Position numbers and translations under genes: made by a program. Shown piece by piece: positions 4,608 through 63,781 of a stretch of DNA of 64,000 nucleotides; the stretch's first letter is position 1, and every line of letters begins with the position of its first letter. The notes beneath the pieces were generated by a model that was not told the DNA's origin, did no database searches, and saw only the letters and a list, made by a program, of their open reading frames with translations. The DNA comes from Caulobacter sp. 602-2. GTDB taxonomy: Bacteria; Pseudomonadota; Alphaproteobacteria; Caulobacterales; Caulobacteraceae. The stretch is from contig NZ_JAAKGT010000012.1 of assembly GCF_011043625.1 (NCBI RefSeq), positions 1 to 64,000 on the forward strand. The letters run 5' to 3'.

Positions 4608-4700
4608 AATCAAATACTTGCGGCGTGGCGTCCGCCGAAGCCGCTCATACTTTCGGCTGCCACGCCGTAGACTCTCGATTTCGTCACACGGTGCGACTAC

Positions 4701-5483
4701 ATGCACGCCATGACCCGTCACATCCCCCTGCAAGGCGTCGAGAACTTCCGCGACTATGGCGACTACGCCGCCGGGGCGGGGCGGTTGAAGAAAGGGCTGC
4801 TGTTCCGCGCCGCCCACCAGGCCGACGCCACCGACGAGGATCTGGCCGCGATGGCGGGCCTGGGCATCGTCACCATCGTGGATCTGCGCCGCGCGCCCGA
4901 GCGCCAGCGCGAGCCGTCGCGGCGCTGGAGCGGTTTCTCGGCCCAGGTGATCGACAACGACCTGGGCGGCGAGGGCGACGATCCCTGGCAGACCTTCCTG
5001 CGCGGCTGGGACCATTCGGAAGGCCCGCTGCGCGGCTACATGGTCGAGTCCTATCGCAGGAAGCCGTTCACCCCGCGCCACGTCGACCTCTTCAGGCGCT
5101 ACTTCGCGGCGCTGGCCGAAGCCAAGGGGCCGGTGCTGATCCACTGCGCGGCCGGCAAGGACCGCACGGGGCTGCTGGCCGCGCTGACCCACCACCTGGC
5201 CGGCGTGTCGCGCGATGACCTGGTCGAGGACTATCTGGCTACCAACGATCCCGAACGCTACGCCCGCATAGGCGAGCGGATCGGCCGCTACCTGGCCGGC
5301 TACACCGGCTCGGTCCCGCCCGAGGCGGCGATCCGCGCGGCCCTGGCGGTGGAGGCCGAGTACATCCTGGCCTCGATCGAGGCCATCGAGGCCGCCCACG
5401 GCAGCATCGACGCCTATCTGGAGACGGTGCTGGGCGTGGATGCGGCGACCCGCGAGGCGATCCTGGCCCACATCCTGGACTGA
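4701..5483 (+). CDS. Tyrosine-protein phosphatase (dual-specificity type)
   Basis: A 260-residue protein of the bacterial Y_phosphatase3 family (PF13350). It opens with the typical IPLQGVENFRDYG and VDLRRAPERQ. The active-site loop is HCAAGKDRTG, with the cysteine near residue 149 and the arginine near 155 (CX5R), so it should form a cysteinyl-phosphate intermediate. No signal peptide is visible. The start may instead be the ATG at 4710 (MTRHIPLQ); neither has a strong ribosome-binding site. The substrate may be phosphotyrosine or phosphoinositide-like; this is not decidable here. Confidence 0.88.
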   Translation: MHAMTRHIPLQGVENFRDYGDYAAGAGRLKKGLLFRAAHQADATDEDLAAMAGLGIVTIVDLRRAPERQREPSRRWSGFSAQVIDNDLGGEGDDPWQTFLRGWDHSEGPLRGYMVESYRRKPFTPRHVDLFRRYFAALAEAKGPVLIHCAAGKDRTGLLAALTHHLAGVSRDDLVEDYLATNDPERYARIGERIGRYLAGYTGSVPPEAAIRAALAVEAEYILASIEAIEAAHGSIDAYLETVLGVDAATREAILAHILD

Positions 5484-51007: not shown

Positions 51008-51204
51008 ACTGCCACTCCAGTTCAATGGCCGTCCAACTGGGGTGCTCCCAATCGACGTCCCCCTGCCATCCACCGTGCTCGCGCGCGGCCGAGCGTCGAC
51101 GCGATCGAGCAGGTCGAATCAACTTGAGCGTACAGCGCAAAGCGCGCTGCTCATCTCGCTAAGCCGCGCGGTTGGCTTGGAAATTCATCTGTCGAGGAAA
51201 GTGG

Positions 51205-51250
51205 TGGTGCCGCCTAGGTGACTCGAACACCTGACCTACGCATTACGAAT
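51205..51250 (-). other. 3' half of tRNA-Thr(CGT): left attachment site of an integrated element
   Basis: On the minus strand the sequence reads from the anticodon loop TTCGTAA (anticodon CGT) through the variable loop, T arm (AGGTG-TTCGAGT-CACCT) and acceptor strand to GGCGGCACCA. Upstream of the loop, beyond 51251, no matching anticodon 5' strand, D arm or acceptor strand exists. So it is not a working tRNA gene. Such a 3' fragment next to a tyrosine integrase is the usual sign of insertion into a tRNA gene. Confidence 0.85.
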
Positions 51251-51437
51251 GAGGTGCGTGCGACTACGGCGCTCTACGTCCATGCACGTCGATGTATCGT
51301 AAGTTGCTGATCCAAAAGGAATATGTGGATCGTTCGTGCGGGCATCTACGGCGCTCGACGGCCAACCACGAGCTCGCTTGCTTCCATATTGCTTCCACGC
51401 AGGGCGTCCGTAAGGAAGCTTGGGAAAGGAGCAAAGC

Positions 51438-52613
51438 ATGCCAAAACGAACGAGCCTTCGCCTCACCAAGCGGATCATTGATGATGCGAAGCCGGACAGT
51501 CAAACATGGGATAGCGAAGTTCCTGGCTTTGGCGTTCGGCGGACGGCAGCCGGTACACGGTCGTTCATCTATGCCTACCGGACGCGAAGTGGTCAGCAGC
51601 GGAAAATGGCGCTGGGAGGCTACCCGGCGCTCACCGTAGAGGCTGCCCGGAGCATCGCCCGCGAGCATGCGGTGAAGATCGCGCGTGGTGAAGACCCGGC
51701 GGCCGAGCGTCGAGCTCAAAGGCAAGCCGAGACGCTCGCCGACATGGTGGTCCACTACTGCGACGAGTACGGGCCTAACGTCAGGCTCAAGGCGCGATCC
51801 ATCCGGGACGCCCGCCAGGTGCTTGTCGCCCACGCCCTCCCGAAGTTCGGCAAGACCCGTATCGCGGACTTCCGGCCCGACGACATTCGCCGCATCCACG
51901 GCGATGCTCAGGACCGCGCCGGCCCTTACCAGGCGAACCGACTCCTCGCTGCGCTGAGCAGGATCTTCAACCTCGCGATCGAACAAGAGGTGAGGGCGAC
52001 CAACCCCTGCAAGGGGGTGAAGAAGTTTCCCGAGGAGGAGCGCTGGAGAAATCTCTCGACCGAAGAGGTGCGACGCCTTCTGGAGGCCTGCGATCGCTGT
52101 CCCTACGAGGATGGTGCGAACGCCATCCGCCTGCTGTTGTTCACCGGCGCGCGCCTCCAAGAAGTGCTGAGGGCCGAGTGGTCGATGTTCGATCTTTCCG
52201 CTGGCGTCTGGGAAAAGCCGTCGAGCCACACAAAGACCAAGAGGCTCCACCGGGTTGAGCTAGCCGGGCCATCGCTGGACCTACTTCGGCGCATGAGGGG
52301 CGAGGATCTGGCGGGGAAGTACCTCTTCCCGGGAAGACCTGGCGGGTACGGGGCGGTGAACCCACGGACGGACTTGAAGCGTCCTTGGTCGTGGCTGATC
52401 CGAGAAGCTGCTCTCTCCGACGTCAGGCTTCATGACCTACGTCGAACGACGGCAAGCTTCATGCTCGATCAGAACGCGCCGCTGGTCACCATTGGTAAGG
52501 CGCTCGGCCACACCCAGGTGGCGACCACTCAGCGGTACGCTCAGCTTCGGTCTACCGCGCAAAGAAACGCGCTAGAGGGAGCTGGCTTGGCGATGGTTCG
52601 TTCTCTAACTTAA
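51438..52613 (+). CDS. P4-type tyrosine integrase
   Basis: A 391-residue phage-type recombinase. The N-terminus (TSLRLTKRIIDDAKPDSQTW, then DSEVPGFGVRRTAAGTRSFI) is the DUF4102 domain of P4-like integrases, followed by a SAM-like core-binding domain. The catalytic domain holds R (LLLFTGARLQEVLRAEWSMF), HDLRRT and LGHTQVATTQRYAQL with the tyrosine nucleophile. AAAGGAG is 7 bases before the ATG at 51438; a TTG at 51420 is the alternative. It catalyses insertion at the tRNA-Thr gene 190 bases away. Confidence 0.93.
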   Translation: MPKRTSLRLTKRIIDDAKPDSQTWDSEVPGFGVRRTAAGTRSFIYAYRTRSGQQRKMALGGYPALTVEAARSIAREHAVKIARGEDPAAERRAQRQAETLADMVVHYCDEYGPNVRLKARSIRDARQVLVAHALPKFGKTRIADFRPDDIRRIHGDAQDRAGPYQANRLLAALSRIFNLAIEQEVRATNPCKGVKKFPEEERWRNLSTEEVRRLLEACDRCPYEDGANAIRLLLFTGARLQEVLRAEWSMFDLSAGVWEKPSSHTKTKRLHRVELAGPSLDLLRRMRGEDLAGKYLFPGRPGGYGAVNPRTDLKRPWSWLIREAALSDVRLHDLRRTTASFMLDQNAPLVTIGKALGHTQVATTQRYAQLRSTAQRNALEGAGLAMVRSLT

Positions 52614-52863: not shown

Positions 52864-56036
<3,173 letters not shown>

Positions 56037-56037
<1 letters not shown>

Positions 56038-57046
56038 TAGGCCTCGTCTGCCTCCTCTGGGCCCGAGTCGTCGGTCTCGTGCACCTGAGCTTCGTTGCCG
56101 TCGCTCAGGGCCAAGGCGTAGGGCTTGAAGATGCTGTAAAATCGCTCGAGTTGCTCAACGATCCACGCCTGCTGGGCTGGCCAATCGGTCTCGTTGGTCG
56201 GGTTCGTGTTCTCTCGGTAGAGTGCGATGCGGCACTGCTTCCGGCCGTCCAGGCGTTGCCAGGAGAGCGGATGGCCGAACTTGGCTTCCACTTCGCCCTT
56301 CTGGGCCAGCATCTCGTCGAACCAGACCTTGCCCGGCGGCCCCCGGAAGGAGAACTCGACGGCGACGTACTGCTTGCCGCTGTTGATCGTCGCGGTGAGC
56401 CAAGTGTTCGCTCGGCCGAGACGATAGTCCGCCCAGTGCTGCGGGTGGGCCTTCTGGGGGCGGACCTTGCTATTCTTCTCCAGCAATCGCGAACGCACGC
56501 CCTGCCAGAAACGCTGCTGCTGTTGCTTCAGGTCCGAGACGGTGTTTTCGGCGGACTGCTTTACCTCGCGCGTCCACTCGTTCGGCTCAGCCAGAACGTT
56601 GAGCATCGGAGCAGGATCGGAATTGCCGATCTGCCACAGCTCGATCTGGAGGCCGAAGAACTGGTAGGCGTCGCTCGTGATGTCGTTCAGCCAATCGAGC
56701 GCTGCGCGGTGCTCCTCGGCGAAGTACTGGGCGACCCAGACGATCGTCGCGGCCTTGAGGCCCGCCGCGTAGGTGAGGAGCTGGCCCAGGTGGCGATGGT
56801 CGGTCTTCTCCAACTGGTTCTCTATCAGCACCCAGTGCTCATCGGGCGTATCGGTGCGTTTGGCGAGAATGTCCGCTCTGAAGGGGCCGATGAATTGCTC
56901 GGTGGCCTCTACTTCCAGGTCCATGCCGAGCGCGTCCTGGAGCAGCTCCAGGCCGTCCGGCGAGGCCAGCCAGGGGGTGAAATGCGCCGCTTCGTTCGGC
57001 CAGGCCCTGCGGACATCGACTTGGGTCACTTTGCCCAGCTTCACGG

Positions 57047-57050
<4 letters not shown>
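56037..57050 (-). CDS. DUF4268 protein, putative nuclease-fold accessory of the type I system
   Basis: A 337-residue protein with a GTG start at 57050 that overlaps the hsdS stop (GTGA). Residues 1-100 look like a PD-(D/E)XK-type core: E51, then D60 in FRADILA, then E77-N-Q79 in VLIENQLEKTDHRHLGQLLT. Q stands where K is more common. The C-terminal half, from about residue 200, is the DUF4268 domain (QQQQRFWQGVRSRLLEKNSK to the end). A longer frame up to 57188 lies in hsdS and is ignored. Coupled on both sides to hsdS and hsdR, so it is made with the enzyme. Its role is not established. Confidence 0.82.
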
Positions 57051-58215
<1,165 letters not shown>

Positions 58216-58219
<4 letters not shown>

Positions 58220-59775
58220 GCCTGCAGCACCTCGGCCACGTTTTGCGCGATCACAGTCTGCAGTCTCGCAGCCTCAATATTCAGCCCCTCCAGCTCCTCC
58301 TGCAGGGCTTCAAGCCGCTCCTTGAAGTCGACGCCGTCTACTTGCTCGCCTGGGGGCACGCCCACATAGCGGCCAGGGTTTAGGCTCCAGTCTTGACCGG
58401 CAATCGCGGTCCGGGTGGCGACCTTGCACAGGCCGAGCACGTCCTTGTAGCCATCGTCACCGAAGATTTCGGTCATGCGCTCGCCGCTGCCGGCTTCCAG
58501 CTCCTTGTCCTGACCACGCCACAGGCGCACGATGTTGCCCAAGAACTCGATCTGGTCGGGCGTGTAGTCGCGGTGGGCGCGGCTGACCTGGCGGAACACG
58601 TGCTTGGCGTCGATGAACAGCACCTCGTCGGCTCGCTCCCCCTTCGCTTTGGCCTTGTCGAGGAACCAGAGGGTTACCGGCAGGGTGACTGTGAAGAACA
58701 TTTTTGGCGAGGTGGAGACGATCACGTCCACGGCCCCGCTCTCGATCAGCTTGCGGCGCATCTCCCGCTCCGACCCGTCCGCGTCCGAGGCCGAGTTGGC
58801 CATGACGAAGCCTGCACGGCCCGTCTCGTTCAGGGCCGCGTTGAATAGGCCGATCCAGAGGTAGTTGGCGTTGTTGGTGGTCGGGATGCCGAGCGAAAAC
58901 TTTGCGTCGACATGGCCAGTCTCGGTCACCAGGCGGCTGCGATCGACTTCCGACTGGTTGAAGGGCGGGTTCGCCATGACGAAGTCGAACTGGCCGACCA
59001 TGCCATGCGGGTCCTCGTAGTAGCTGTTGGCGATCTTGATGTCGCCCGAGACCCCGTGGACCGCCAGATTGAGGCGGCACAGCTTCTGGGTGTCCGACAT
59101 CTTCTCGGCCCCGTAGATGCCGATCTCACGCGTAGGGTTCTTGTGGTGGCGTTTCACGAACTCGGCGGAGTGGACGAACATGCCGCCTGAGCCGCAGGCG
59201 GGGTCGAAAATCTTGCCGTGGTAGGGTTCCAGGATCTCGACGATCAGCTTCACGATCGAGCCGGGGGTGAAGTACTCGCCGCCCTTCTGCATGTACGACG
59301 AGGCGAACTCGCCCATGAAGTACTCAAAGATAAGGCCGTAGGCGTCCCCGTCGATCCTCACCGGCTGGAGTAGGCGCAACAGCTCCCTCAGGACGCTGTT
59401 GGGCAGCGATCCATAGCCTTGAGGCATGACCCCCGCCAGGTCCGGGTTGTTCTCCGTGATGGCCTTCATAGCCTTGTTTAGAGCCTCGGCCAGATTTTCT
59501 GTCTCCGGCAGGGACAGCAGGTAGGAGAAGCGGGCATGCTCAGGCAGGAAGACGGCGCCGTGGCCGTGGTAATCCCCTGGTGTGGGCTTCAGGCGCCCTG
59601 TCATCGTCTTGGAAAGCCCGGAATGGACTAGGTCAAACTTGGCCTCCATCTGCCGCAGAGCGATCAGGGCAAGCACCGGTTGGGCGTACTGGTCCGGGCG
59701 CAAGTCGGTGTTGGTCCACAATTGGTTCGCCGTCTGGAAAAGGCGGCGGGTGAGGTCCTGCAGGTCTACTTGCAC
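58216..59775 (-). CDS. hsdM: Type I restriction enzyme, modification (methylase) subunit
   Basis: A 519-residue N6-adenine methyltransferase. HsdM_N helices cover about residues 1-130. SAM motif I is DPACGSGGMF (191-200) and the catalytic motif IV NPPF (269-272). It methylates target adenines with HsdS. The start is GTG at 59775 without a strong ribosome-binding site. First gene of the operon; ATGA overlap with hsdS. Confidence 0.95.
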
Positions 59776-60116
59776 TTGGTGAGGAATTCCGATTGTCGAG
59801 CGTGTCGTGGACCATACCCAAGGAGGCTTTGAGGTCCACCTAATTCACCGGCATCCCTGCGGCGGTGGCATGGCGTGCAGGGGGGCCTCACTTTGCAACG
59901 GGTTGCACGGTCGTGGTGGCGCAAAGGCAGGTCCTCGATGGCCCCTTCGAGCGTGAGTTCCTCGATGAGGGGGAAGGGCGGCGCAGCATGTCTCATCGGG
60001 CTATACCCTGGCGAGACGTCTCGCCGACCCTTCAAAGCCGTCTCATTTGGGTTGATCCCAAATTTTTGGGACATTAGACTCTGAGGGTCTAAGATCCATA
60101 CGAGACGGAGTGGTGG
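59776..60116. promoter_or_regulatory. Divergent region with recombination-site-like dyads
   Basis: About 340 bases without a credible gene. Next to the recombinase gene, TTTGGG-TTGAT-CCCAAA (60047-60063 region), TCCCAAA-TTT-TTGGGA and GTCTC...GAGAC (around 60034 and 60102) form overlapping inverted repeats. These resemble a res/hix site where a serine recombinase would bind. TTGGGA (60066-60071) and TAAGAT (60090-60095), 18 bases apart, are a possible promoter. The hsdM promoter should also be in this gap; I could not place it. Confidence 0.5.
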
Positions 60117-60680
60117 GTGGCGGTGGTTGGTTACGCTCGCGTATCGAGCGCGGGGCAATCCCTAGAGGTTCAGCAGGAGCAGCTTGCTGCGGCCGGCTGC
60201 ATGAAGGTGTTCGCCGAGAAGCGCTCTGGCACGACCACCGAGGGGCGCGAGCAGCTTGATCTTGCATTGTCCTATGTGCGGGAGGGGGATGTCTTCGTTG
60301 TCACCCGTCTTGACCGCCTTGCGCGCTCTCTCGTCGACCTGCGTAGGACTGTCGATGCGCTCACGGCGAAGGGGGTCGGCTTTCGCTGCATCCAGCAGAC
60401 GATCGACACTACCAGCTCGGAGGGGCGGCTGATGCTCAACATCCTTGCCTCATTCGCCGAGTTCGAGACCGACATACGGAAAGAGCGGCAGCGCGACGGG
60501 ATCGAGAAGGCCAAAGAGGCAGGCAAGTACAGGGGACGCCCGGCGTCGATAGACGTGGCGCAGATCCGCGCGCTGGAGGAGAAGGGGGTCGGTCCGGCGG
60601 AAATCGCCAAGCGCCTGGGAATAGGCCGTGCCAGCGTCTATCGGCTCAAGGCCTCAGCTCCTGCGGCACCCGCGAGCTAG
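60117..60680 (+). CDS. Serine recombinase (resolvase/invertase family)
   Basis: A 187-residue small serine recombinase. VVGYARVSSAGQSLEVQQEQ holds the catalytic serine near residue 10, and DVFVVTRLDRLARSLVDLRR and ASFAEFETDIRKERQRDGIE are family motifs. A C-terminal helix-turn-helix (GPAEIAKRLGIGRASVYRLK) binds DNA. It starts with GTG at 60117 with GGAG 7 bases upstream. It may invert or resolve DNA at the adjacent dyads. Confidence 0.93.
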   Translation: MAVVGYARVSSAGQSLEVQQEQLAAAGCMKVFAEKRSGTTTEGREQLDLALSYVREGDVFVVTRLDRLARSLVDLRRTVDALTAKGVGFRCIQQTIDTTSSEGRLMLNILASFAEFETDIRKERQRDGIEKAKEAGKYRGRPASIDVAQIRALEEKGVGPAEIAKRLGIGRASVYRLKASAPAAPAS

Positions 60681-60753: not shown

Positions 60754-61788
60754 ATGAGTAACGTCAACACCCTCATTGATCCGCGTAAGGTGGCGGATCT
60801 TGAAGCCATCCTGGTGGGGCTGGACCCAAAGATCGCCGCCAGGTTTCGAACTCGCGAAATGCAGCGGTTGCAGGACGAGGCGAACTCGGCAGCCGTCAAC
60901 CGGCGGCTTTACGCGAACGCATTTGAGCAGGCTCAGCTCAATGGGCATCCGGATCCGCAGGGTTTTGCTCTGGACCAGGTACAATTACAGGGCGTCATCA
61001 AGCTTCACGAGCGGCGGACGGCCGCGATCTTCAAACGCATCAACCATCAGAACAGGATGAGGGCGAATAAGCTTGCCGCCAAGGTGGAGGCGTCGTCCAA
61101 AACTGCGAAGAAGGGCGTTCGTCGCTTTCCTCAAGCGGACCGCCACTATGTTGATATTGTTGGCAAAGCCGAGCGGTTGGGCCATCTCGACAACGCACCT
61201 TTAGTCCTGTCGACTTTCCCCTCTTACCTGAGAACCTACAAGCTGCCTCACTGGGACAAGGCGACGATCAGCCTCAAGGTTATGGCCATGTCGCTAGAGG
61301 CCGCAAAAGAAGGGGCTCAAACGATCAATCTCCGTGTGAGCCCAAGCGTCAGGGCCAGCGCCCTGGCCTCACCTCGAGGCCCGGCCAGTTATATGCAGGA
61401 CGCCATACGGCGAGCGTTTCGCTCCGTGTTTGGCTCCGATGGGTGCCCGGAGTTCTGGTTCGTCATAGAGCTGGATGGTTCCAGCGCGGATGCGTTCCAC
61501 CTCCACGGAGCTGTTGCAACGCCATCAGTCGCTAACGGTCGCGAGCTGGTCGACGCCGCTCTCAGAAGCGCTGCCGGAGGATGGGGCGTTCCTGGCGGAG
61601 CCTATCACCAACAGGTGTCACGCGAACTGCTGGATCCGATCTACTGGGCGTCCTATGCCGTCAAGACCATGAACATTTCCGGCAGGGAGATAGAGCGTAA
61701 GCTTCTTGCGAGCACCAACGGGATCCGGGCGTGGGCTAGAGGATCCTGGGAAGATGTTCGAGCAAGCTTGCCTCAGCCGGGAATGTAA
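60754..61788 (+). CDS. Uncharacterised protein with HUH-endonuclease-like motifs
   Basis: A 344-residue protein that I cannot assign to a named family. Residues 1-130 are helical and charged. In the C-terminal half FWFVIELDGSSADAFHLHG has H249-L-H251 at the end of a strand, the HUH pattern. Later PIYWASYAVKT gives Y297, Y301 and K304, like the tyrosine-lysine helix of replication initiators and relaxases. The order (HUH then Y) is that of Rep-type enzymes. Chosen start ATG 60754 (MSNVNTLIDPRK). GC is lower than in the host. A replication or mobilisation role is inferred only. Confidence 0.55.
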   Translation: MSNVNTLIDPRKVADLEAILVGLDPKIAARFRTREMQRLQDEANSAAVNRRLYANAFEQAQLNGHPDPQGFALDQVQLQGVIKLHERRTAAIFKRINHQNRMRANKLAAKVEASSKTAKKGVRRFPQADRHYVDIVGKAERLGHLDNAPLVLSTFPSYLRTYKLPHWDKATISLKVMAMSLEAAKEGAQTINLRVSPSVRASALASPRGPASYMQDAIRRAFRSVFGSDGCPEFWFVIELDGSSADAFHLHGAVATPSVANGRELVDAALRSAAGGWGVPGGAYHQQVSRELLDPIYWASYAVKTMNISGREIERKLLASTNGIRAWARGSWEDVRASLPQPGM

Positions 61789-61857: not shown

Positions 61858-62367
61858 GTGAAGACTCACTTCATCGTCTGCTCTTATTGGTGTGGGGGCT
61901 TGGCGGTGTTTCCATTTTTTGTGCGGAGCTATGAGGATAGGCGCAAAGCGATGCGTCTCATGCGAGATCGGTTCTCGTCTACGGATGGTGCCTATGTAGT
62001 GCTAGATGCCCAGTGCTTGGCTCTTGGCCCCTACGACCTATCAGCTATCGTGTCAGGGGCTATGCCACTCCTCTATGTCGGCTCATCGAGACATCAGAGT
62101 CGCAGGCTCGGTTACTTTGCTCGGACCGTTGTCGAGGGCTCCCACTTTAACGGCGCCCATGGGTTTGGTGAGTTCTACAGATCCATTGCCAACGAGGTGC
62201 CGCTCGAACGCCTAGCGGTCATCTCGTTCCACTGGCCTTTCGGATACGAGCTCGAGAAACGCATCTACGACGGGCACGTGCGCGCGTTTGGAGCGCCTCC
62301 ATCAGGCAACCTTCGTCGTCCGGTCGCGAGTTCACGTCACGACCGCTTTCCTCATCGGATGCGCTGA
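61858..62367 (+). CDS. GIY-YIG-like protein (tentative)
   Basis: A 169-residue protein from a GTG start after an AT-rich stretch (61789-61857). LLYVGSSRHQSRRLGYF (71-87) has the YVG and R83 pattern of GIY-YIG nucleases. E133 in ELEKRIYDG and N151 in FGAPPSGN sit where the metal-binding glutamate and last asparagine would be. Overall similarity is weak, and the ribosome-binding site is poor. Its TGA overlaps the next ATG (TGATG). Confidence 0.5.
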   Translation: MKTHFIVCSYWCGGLAVFPFFVRSYEDRRKAMRLMRDRFSSTDGAYVVLDAQCLALGPYDLSAIVSGAMPLLYVGSSRHQSRRLGYFARTVVEGSHFNGAHGFGEFYRSIANEVPLERLAVISFHWPFGYELEKRIYDGHVRAFGAPPSGNLRRPVASSRHDRFPHRMR

Positions 62368-62876: not shown

Positions 62877-62993
62877 AGCAATGCGCCGCTTGCGGATCCG
62901 GGTCCCGTCAATCGCCGGGGGCGGGCAAGCTCAGCTCCCTTACACGTAAGGGAGCTCTCCCTCTTTGGCGGCCGAGACCTTCATTGGAGCGTT

Positions 62994-63520: not shown

Positions 63521-63781
63521 ATGGCACGAGCTTGGGTTTCCTCGCCCGCCTACGAGGTCGCAATCGGCCTTCTGATCGCCAAACGGCATGCCGCTGGCCT
63601 GACGCAGCGCGACCTAGCTGCCAAGCTGGAAAAGCCACCATCGTTTGTTGGAAAGCTCGAAAGTCGTGAGCGTAGGCTCGACTTGATTGAGTTTATCGCG
63701 ATAGCGCGCGCTCTTGGCCTTTCTGCACCCGCCTTGATGCAGGAACTTGACGACAAGTTGCTCAACGTTGGGAAAATCTAA
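63521..63781 (+). CDS. XRE-family transcriptional regulator
   Basis: An 86-residue protein with one helix-turn-helix: LLIAKRHAAGLTQRDLAAKL then KPPSFVGKLESRERRLDLIE. AGGAAGG stands 6 bases before the ATG. It is divergent from the DUF3862-like gene and may control it or the element. Confidence 0.85.
   Translation: MARAWVSSPAYEVAIGLLIAKRHAAGLTQRDLAAKLEKPPSFVGKLESRERRLDLIEFIAIARALGLSAPALMQELDDKLLNVGKI

What the first reader, a model, noticed from the sequence alone, without database searches (positions are those of the whole stretch)
60754..61788. Unassigned island protein with HUH and Y-x3-Y-x2-K motifs
H249-L-H251 ends a predicted strand and Y297/Y301/K304 sits about 46 residues later, the order of Rep-type HUH endonucleases. 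The protein does not otherwise look like a known Rep or relaxase. If real, the element could replicate or transfer by a rolling-circle step.
Basis: partly seen in the sequence, partly recalled or inferred. Interest (0 to 1): 0.6.

Follow-up and report, generated by a model that had tools for sequence, protein, structure and literature searches.

The report
Rep-type HUH nuclease of defence island
The unassigned gene very probably encodes a DNA-nicking replication starter (one-tyrosine HUH endonuclease) of an unnamed family, carried by a 17.5-kb mobile island that sits in a tRNA gene and ferries anti-phage genes between alphaproteobacteria; the likely role, copying the excised island by rolling circle, is inferred and not shown.

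Summary
The ORF (344 aa, 60754-61788 +) and its motifs are real. No Pfam, PHROGs or NCBIfam model recognises it. Sixteen aligned homologues from Caulobacteraceae (20-45% identical) keep H249, H251, G252, W298, Y301 and K304 without exception. Y297 is kept in only 2 of 16, so this is a one-tyrosine HUH enzyme (HUHG ... W-x2-Y-x2-K), not a Y-x3-Y enzyme. AlphaFold gives an HUH-like arrangement; Foldseek's best hits are microvirus replication initiators (probability 1.00) and parvovirus Rep/NS1 nuclease domains. A profile comparison aligns both motifs in register with PF23343 (REP_ORF2-G2P) Reps, but membership of that family is not met. The gene sits in a 17.5-kb element bounded by 50-bp repeats at tRNA-Thr(CGT), with integrase, AlpA-like and XRE regulators, a serine resolvase directly upstream, and type I restriction plus candidate defence genes. 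Related elements (8-17 kb) share att site, integrase and Rep but carry other cargo, e.g. DRT3. A conserved ~120-bp site before the resolvase follows the resolvase, not the Rep, so it is read as res and not as the Rep origin. Best reading: Rep nicks the excised circle and starts rolling-circle copying; the resolvase reduces multimers. No origin was found.

The parts
60754..61788 (+). Rep-type HUH endonuclease, 344 aa; helical N-terminal half (about 1-155) and C-terminal HUH domain (about 185-340): motif I T190-I-N-L193, motif II H249-L-H251-G, motif III W298-A-S-Y301-A-V-K304
60117..60680 (+). short serine recombinase (resolvase, 187 aa; PF00239 + HTH_7), directly upstream of the Rep gene; the same order in 11 of 16 Rep loci
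59995..60116 (+). conserved noncoding site before the resolvase (palindrome GGCGAGACGTCTCGCC, ATTTGGGTTGATCCCAAAT, TTAGACTCTGAGGGTCTAA); best read as the resolvase's res site and operator
51202..51251 (.). left attachment repeat, 50 bp identical to 68678-68727 of the same contig (3' part of tRNA-Thr(CGT), beyond the window)
51420..52613 (+). P4-type tyrosine integrase (Arm-DNA-bind_3 + Phage_integrase)
63521..63781 (+). XRE-type HTH regulator, conserved in at least seven related loci
61858..62367 (+). small GIY-YIG-like protein (LLYVGSS...), 32% identical to a protein near the Rep of element L035, which has a weak PF01541 hit
52864..56037 (-). type I restriction subunit HsdR (cargo)
56037..57188 (-). 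DUF4268 protein, PADLOC candidate PDC-S11 (cargo)
57047..58219 (-). type I specificity subunit HsdS (cargo)
58216..59775 (-). type I methyltransferase HsdM (cargo)
62933..62956 (.). AGCTCCCTTACACGTAAGGGAGCT, strongest short hairpin found in the scanned intergenic stretches; weak candidate for a Rep origin, unproven

Best explanation
The protein is a one-tyrosine Rep-type HUH endonuclease: H249 and H251 (with E239) bind the metal, Y301 attacks one DNA strand and stays covalently on the 5' end, K304 assists. It is the replication initiator of an integrative element. Proposed cycle: the P4-type integrase, helped by the AlpA-like protein, excises the 17.5-kb element from tRNA-Thr; Rep nicks an origin on the circle and starts rolling-circle copying with host helicase and polymerase; the upstream serine resolvase, acting at the conserved site before its gene, reduces multimers to monomers; the element then reintegrates or moves on, possibly with a helper. 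Shown here: motifs, conservation, fold-level similarity, gene order, attachment repeats. Inferred: nicking, replication, multimer resolution.
For: Invariant HUHG and W-x2-Y-x2-K in 16 homologues, and the three-motif order of Reps, with motif I as hydrophobic-hydrophobic-[T/N/S]-hydrophobic (motif definitions PMC6668415). More distant relatives from other alphaproteobacterial families keep HxHG and/or Y-x2-K where the alignment covers them. Predicted strands 189-194, 234-240, 248-254 and a helix 295-307 carrying Y301. Foldseek: microvirus replication initiators E 6e-6, probability 1.00; AAV Rep68, parvovirus NS1 and circovirus Rep among the top PDB matches. hhalign to PF23343 proteins P 7.7e-5 with both motifs in register; reversed and shuffled controls P >= 0.13. 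Element with att repeats, integrase, AlpA-like protein and several relatives at the same tRNA-Thr. Resolvase directly upstream in 11 of 16 Rep loci, while the window's genome has only four serine recombinases in 5.2 Mb.
Against: No origin or nick site was identified. PDB Foldseek matches are weak (best E 0.011, TM about 0.4). The window protein itself has no significant hit to any Rep family. No sign of a circular or multicopy form could be tested. Five of 16 Rep loci lack an upstream same-strand resolvase, so resolution is not obligatory.
Confidence: 0.62

Rival explanations
1. The protein is a relaxase-like HUH enzyme: it nicks an oriT on the excised element so that a co-resident conjugative system can carry it (an integrative mobilizable element). 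Rep-type enzymes can do this, as Rep_trans proteins do in streptococcal IMEs.
For: No capsid or mating-pair genes recognised in the element; Rep_trans 'initiators' in IMEs proved to be relaxases (PMC7563843).
Against: Motif order HUH then Tyr with YxxK is that of Reps; no N-terminal Tyr and no H-x3-H-x-H; no oriT or helper identified.
Confidence: 0.2
2. The element is a phage satellite (PICI- or P4-like) and the HUH protein is its replication initiator, used after helper-phage induction.
For: Integrase, AlpA-like protein (PHROG excisionase/regulator), replication protein, 8-17 kb size and defence cargo resemble Gram-negative PICIs (PMC6092414).
Against: No Pri-Rep primase seen among the proteins scanned, no convincing packaging genes, no hit in 50,697 phage records or in three viral-contig scans.
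Confidence: 0.15
3. The HUH fold survives but the protein now only binds DNA (regulator), without nicking.
For: Some HUH domains, such as those of papilloma- and polyomaviruses, lost catalysis (PMC6668415).
Against: Those lost all three motifs; here all are kept, and the two histidines, the tyrosine and the lysine are invariant over a range of 20-45% identity.
Confidence: 0.03

Closest known systems
PF23343 REP_ORF2-G2P (Rep domain of inovirus G2P-like and related proteins)
   Same: HUH and YxxK in register, conserved acidic residue before HUH, UUTU-like motif I; weak hits in 8 of 16 family members
   Different: all hits below the curated cut-off (best 19.3 of 27.8 bits); window protein itself has none; extra helical N-terminal half; invariant Trp three residues before the Tyr
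Microvirus replication initiator proteins
   Same: best fold matches (probability 1.00)
   Different: encoded by a tRNA-integrated element with no capsid gene recognised; 10-21% identity over aligned parts
AAV Rep68 / parvovirus NS1 nuclease domain
   Same: top PDB fold matches, one catalytic Tyr
   Different: no SF3 helicase domain; weak structural score
YfjJ/YagK (PF11726) of CP4-57/CP4-6-type elements
   Same: Rep-like HUH protein in integrase-bearing elements (the latter from memory)
   Different: no direct profile match (P 0.24)
Gram-negative PICIs and P4 satellites
   Same: P4-type integrase, AlpA-like protein, own replication gene, size, variable defence cargo
   Different: HUH Rep instead of Pri-Rep; serine resolvase; no packaging module seen

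Membership tests
HUH endonuclease superfamily, Rep type | HUH metal-binding motif | tested here: met
   H249-L-H251 invariant
HUH endonuclease superfamily, Rep type | motif III YxxK C-terminal to HUH | tested here: met
   Y301, K304 invariant
HUH endonuclease superfamily, Rep type | motif I UUTU strand | tested here: met
   U-U-[T/N/S]-U on predicted strand 189-194; N or S in place of T in part of the rows
HUH endonuclease superfamily, Rep type | HUH fold | tested here: met
   AlphaFold plus Foldseek; confidence moderate (pLDDT 76-78, central strands best, fifth strand not clearly formed)
HUH endonuclease superfamily, Rep type | nicking with 5'-phosphotyrosine | not testable with these tools
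   needs assay
Two-tyrosine (Y2) Reps | second conserved Tyr in motif III | tested here: not met
   Y297 in 2 of 16 rows
MOB relaxases | N-terminal Tyr before a three-His motif | tested here: not met
   Tyr follows HUH; only two His
PF23343 REP_ORF2-G2P | score above gathering cut-off | tested here: not met
   best family member 19.3 of 27.8 bits; window protein no hit
PF11726 YagK_YfjJ_C | profile similarity | tested here: not met
   hhalign P 0.24
tRNA-integrated element of a tyrosine integrase | integrase next to one of two att repeats, the other completing a tRNA | tested here: met
   50-bp repeats, tRNA-Thr(CGT)
PICI / P4-like satellite | Pri-Rep primase and packaging module | tested here: not met
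   none among proteins scanned
PICI / P4-like satellite | phage-dependent induction and packaging | not testable with these tools
   needs culture

The most novel reading that the evidence does not exclude
A previously unnamed family of one-tyrosine Reps (HUHG...W-x2-Y-x2-K) drives rolling-circle replication of a family of tRNA-integrated, defence-carrying elements of alphaproteobacteria, with a dedicated serine resolvase/res pair that resolves multimers: a Rep-resolvase replicon inside an integrative element that is neither ICE, PICI nor P4-like.
Probability: 0.4. Interest if true: 0.62.

Novelty: new variant of a known kind. Interest (0 to 1): 0.5.

Why it matters
Defence genes move on integrative elements whose replication is mostly unknown. 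A replication protein that is invisible to current family models, tied to one att site, one integrase type, AlpA-like and XRE regulators and a resolvase, gives a handle to recognise these elements and to test how they persist and spread. It also adds a branch to the Rep superfamily that links bacterial integrative elements with microvirus and filamentous-phage type Reps.

Tried and rejected
Single-protein scans of Pfam, PHROGs, NCBIfam and PDB sequence gave nothing usable. No match in plasmid or phage records and none in three viral-contig scans, so a plasmid or phage Rep of known type was rejected. The conserved 120-bp site upstream of the resolvase was first considered as the Rep origin; rejected because it also precedes the resolvase next to a distant-clade Rep (L041), is missing before the long-type resolvases seen (L032, L036, L040, L043), and lies before a resolvase in 29 of 30 loci read although only about eight have a Rep next to it. 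PF11726 relationship: not supported directly. Y297 as second nucleophile: rejected. Weak CCTTA..TAAGG hairpins near some Reps: too close to chance. Empty-site test: most genus members hold an intact tRNA-Thr with the right flank, but none of the listed matches spans the joined left flank, so a clean empty site was not shown. Search-hit false friends: L019 (a DNA methyltransferase by sequence reading) and L029 (low-complexity stretch).

Full report
Observation. The ORF at 60754-61788 (+) encodes 344 residues with H249-L-H251, Y297, Y301 and K304 as described. An upstream GTG at 60628 is possible, but the ATG at 60754 fits the homologues' lengths. In shuffles of the same composition HxH..Y-x3-Y-x2-K arises in 0.005% and HxH..YxxK in 1.1% of proteins. 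The motif alone is therefore not proof.

Homologues. No Pfam, PHROGs, NCBIfam or PDB sequence match is usable, and plasmid and phage records give none. Whole-genome searches in the host's family found relatives in 19 of 390 genomes (own genome included) and 6 of 22 genera. The window's genome has one copy. Distant relatives occur in other families of the class.

Conservation. Over 16 rows at 20-45% identity to the window protein the invariant residues include K175, H249, H251, G252, A269, L270, W298, Y301 and K304; E239 is E in 15 and D in one. Y297 is Tyr in only two. The enzyme thus has one candidate nucleophile, Y301. The three motifs of Reps (PMC6668415), UUTU, HUH and YxxK, are all present in the right order; motif I reads U-U-[T/N/S]-U.

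Fold. AlphaFold with four sequences gives pLDDT 75.7 for the whole protein and 77.5 for the C-terminal domain, with the central strands and helices at about 88-95. The order is strand 189-194, helix 210-226, strand 234-240, strand 248-254 (HUH), helix 262-274, helix 295-307 (Y301). The fifth strand of the HUH sheet is not clearly formed in the model. Foldseek against viral predicted structures gives 48 matches below 1e-3; the named ones are replication initiators of microviruses. Against the PDB the top group is AAV Rep68, with parvovirus NS1 and circovirus Rep further down, but with modest E-values (0.011-0.02) and TM-scores. Eight of 16 members hit PF23343 weakly, and profile-profile alignment with ten PF23343 proteins gives P 7.7e-5 with H-x-H on H-x-H and Y-x2-K on Y-x2-K; reversed and shuffled controls give P >= 0.13. 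PF11726 does not match directly. I conclude: a remote relative of the REP_ORF2-G2P group, not a member by its curated cut-off.

The element. GC falls from about 0.67-0.75 to 0.56-0.64 between about 51.0 and 68.7 kb of the contig. A perfect 50-bp direct repeat lies at 51202-51251 and 68678-68727; the right copy is the 3' part of tRNA-Thr(CGT) at 68681-68756. The 17.5-kb element holds a P4-type integrase next to the left repeat, a type I restriction system with a PDC-S11 protein inside it, the resolvase, the Rep, a GIY-YIG-like protein, an XRE regulator, an AAA_13 protein matching PDC-S06, and an AlpA-like gene next to the tRNA. Related elements use the same tRNA-Thr: L035 (8.4 kb: AlpA-like, Rep 7 bp behind it, XRE, GIY-YIG-like, DRT3a/b, integrase), L041 (15.8 kb), and the elements in G002 and G057 (about 16 kb, delimited by repeat positions); integrase-side att copies are also seen in L034, L037 and L043. 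Core and cargo can therefore be told apart: att, integrase, AlpA-like, XRE and Rep recur; the defence genes change.

Resolvase and its site. In 11 of 16 Rep loci a serine recombinase lies upstream on the same strand (gaps from -51 to 1033 bp), while this genome has only four such genes in all. A conserved noncoding block of about 120 bp precedes the short-type resolvase in six of the loci. A sequence model of it finds 43 sites in 37 of 388 family genomes; 29 of the 30 loci read have the resolvase directly behind, but only about eight have a Rep next. The block also precedes the resolvase of L041, whose Rep is of the distant clade. It therefore follows the resolvase, and its length and inverted repeats suit a three-part res site and operator (inference from known Tn3-type resolvases, from memory). 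Two further loci (L080, L095) have divergent HxHG..W-x2-Y-x2-K proteins behind this resolvase, which strengthens the pairing.

Mechanism. Shown: motifs, conservation, fold-level similarity, att repeats, gene order. Inferred: excision by integrase and AlpA-like protein, nicking by Y301, rolling-circle copying of the circle, resolution of multimers. A role in transfer with a helper (as for Rep_trans relaxases of IMEs, PMC7563843) or use as a satellite's replication gene (PMC6092414) cannot be excluded. A recent parallel is Rep-Arvir of archaeal viruses, where a new Rep family was recognised by structure and is switched on after excision (PMC13107129).

Novelty. HUH Reps in integrative elements are known. 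What appears new is the family (no model in the libraries), its invariant Trp, the resolvase/res pairing, and the family of tRNA-Thr elements with exchangeable defence cargo. The literature searches done here found no description of it, but only open-licence papers were searchable.

Noticed in passing
window 59995-60116; L022, L023, L033, L041, L042 and 43 sites in 37 genomes: A conserved ~120-bp noncoding block precedes short serine resolvases across Caulobacteraceae, often without a Rep; probable res site of a widespread resolvase family.
   Followed up: partly
L035:12489-15993: DRT3 reverse-transcriptase defence pair carried as cargo of an 8.4-kb sister element with the same att site and Rep.
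   Followed up: partly
window 56037-57188: DUF4268 protein (PDC-S11) embedded between hsdR and hsdS of a type I system.
   Followed up: no
L030:1602-3845 (contig 65602-67845): AAA_13 ATPase matching candidate defence family PDC-S06 in the same element.
   Followed up: no
L080, L095: Divergent HxHG...W-x2-Y-x2-K proteins (HWHG..WIAYSAKK; HYHG..WVSYCSKE) behind the same resolvase type; probably further Rep families.
   Followed up: no
L030 tRNA-Thr(CGT) at 4681-4756 and several genus members: tRNA-Thr(CGT) is an insertion hotspot: several genomes carry two or three copies of the att repeat.
   Followed up: partly
about 51389-51412 and 68560-68640 of the contig; L035, L041: Direct repeats like TGGAAGCNA near both element ends, likely arm-type integrase sites.
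   Followed up: no
window 61858-62367; L035:10957-11544; L041:8268-8735: Small GIY-YIG-like proteins in three of the elements, near the Rep; role unknown.
   Followed up: partly
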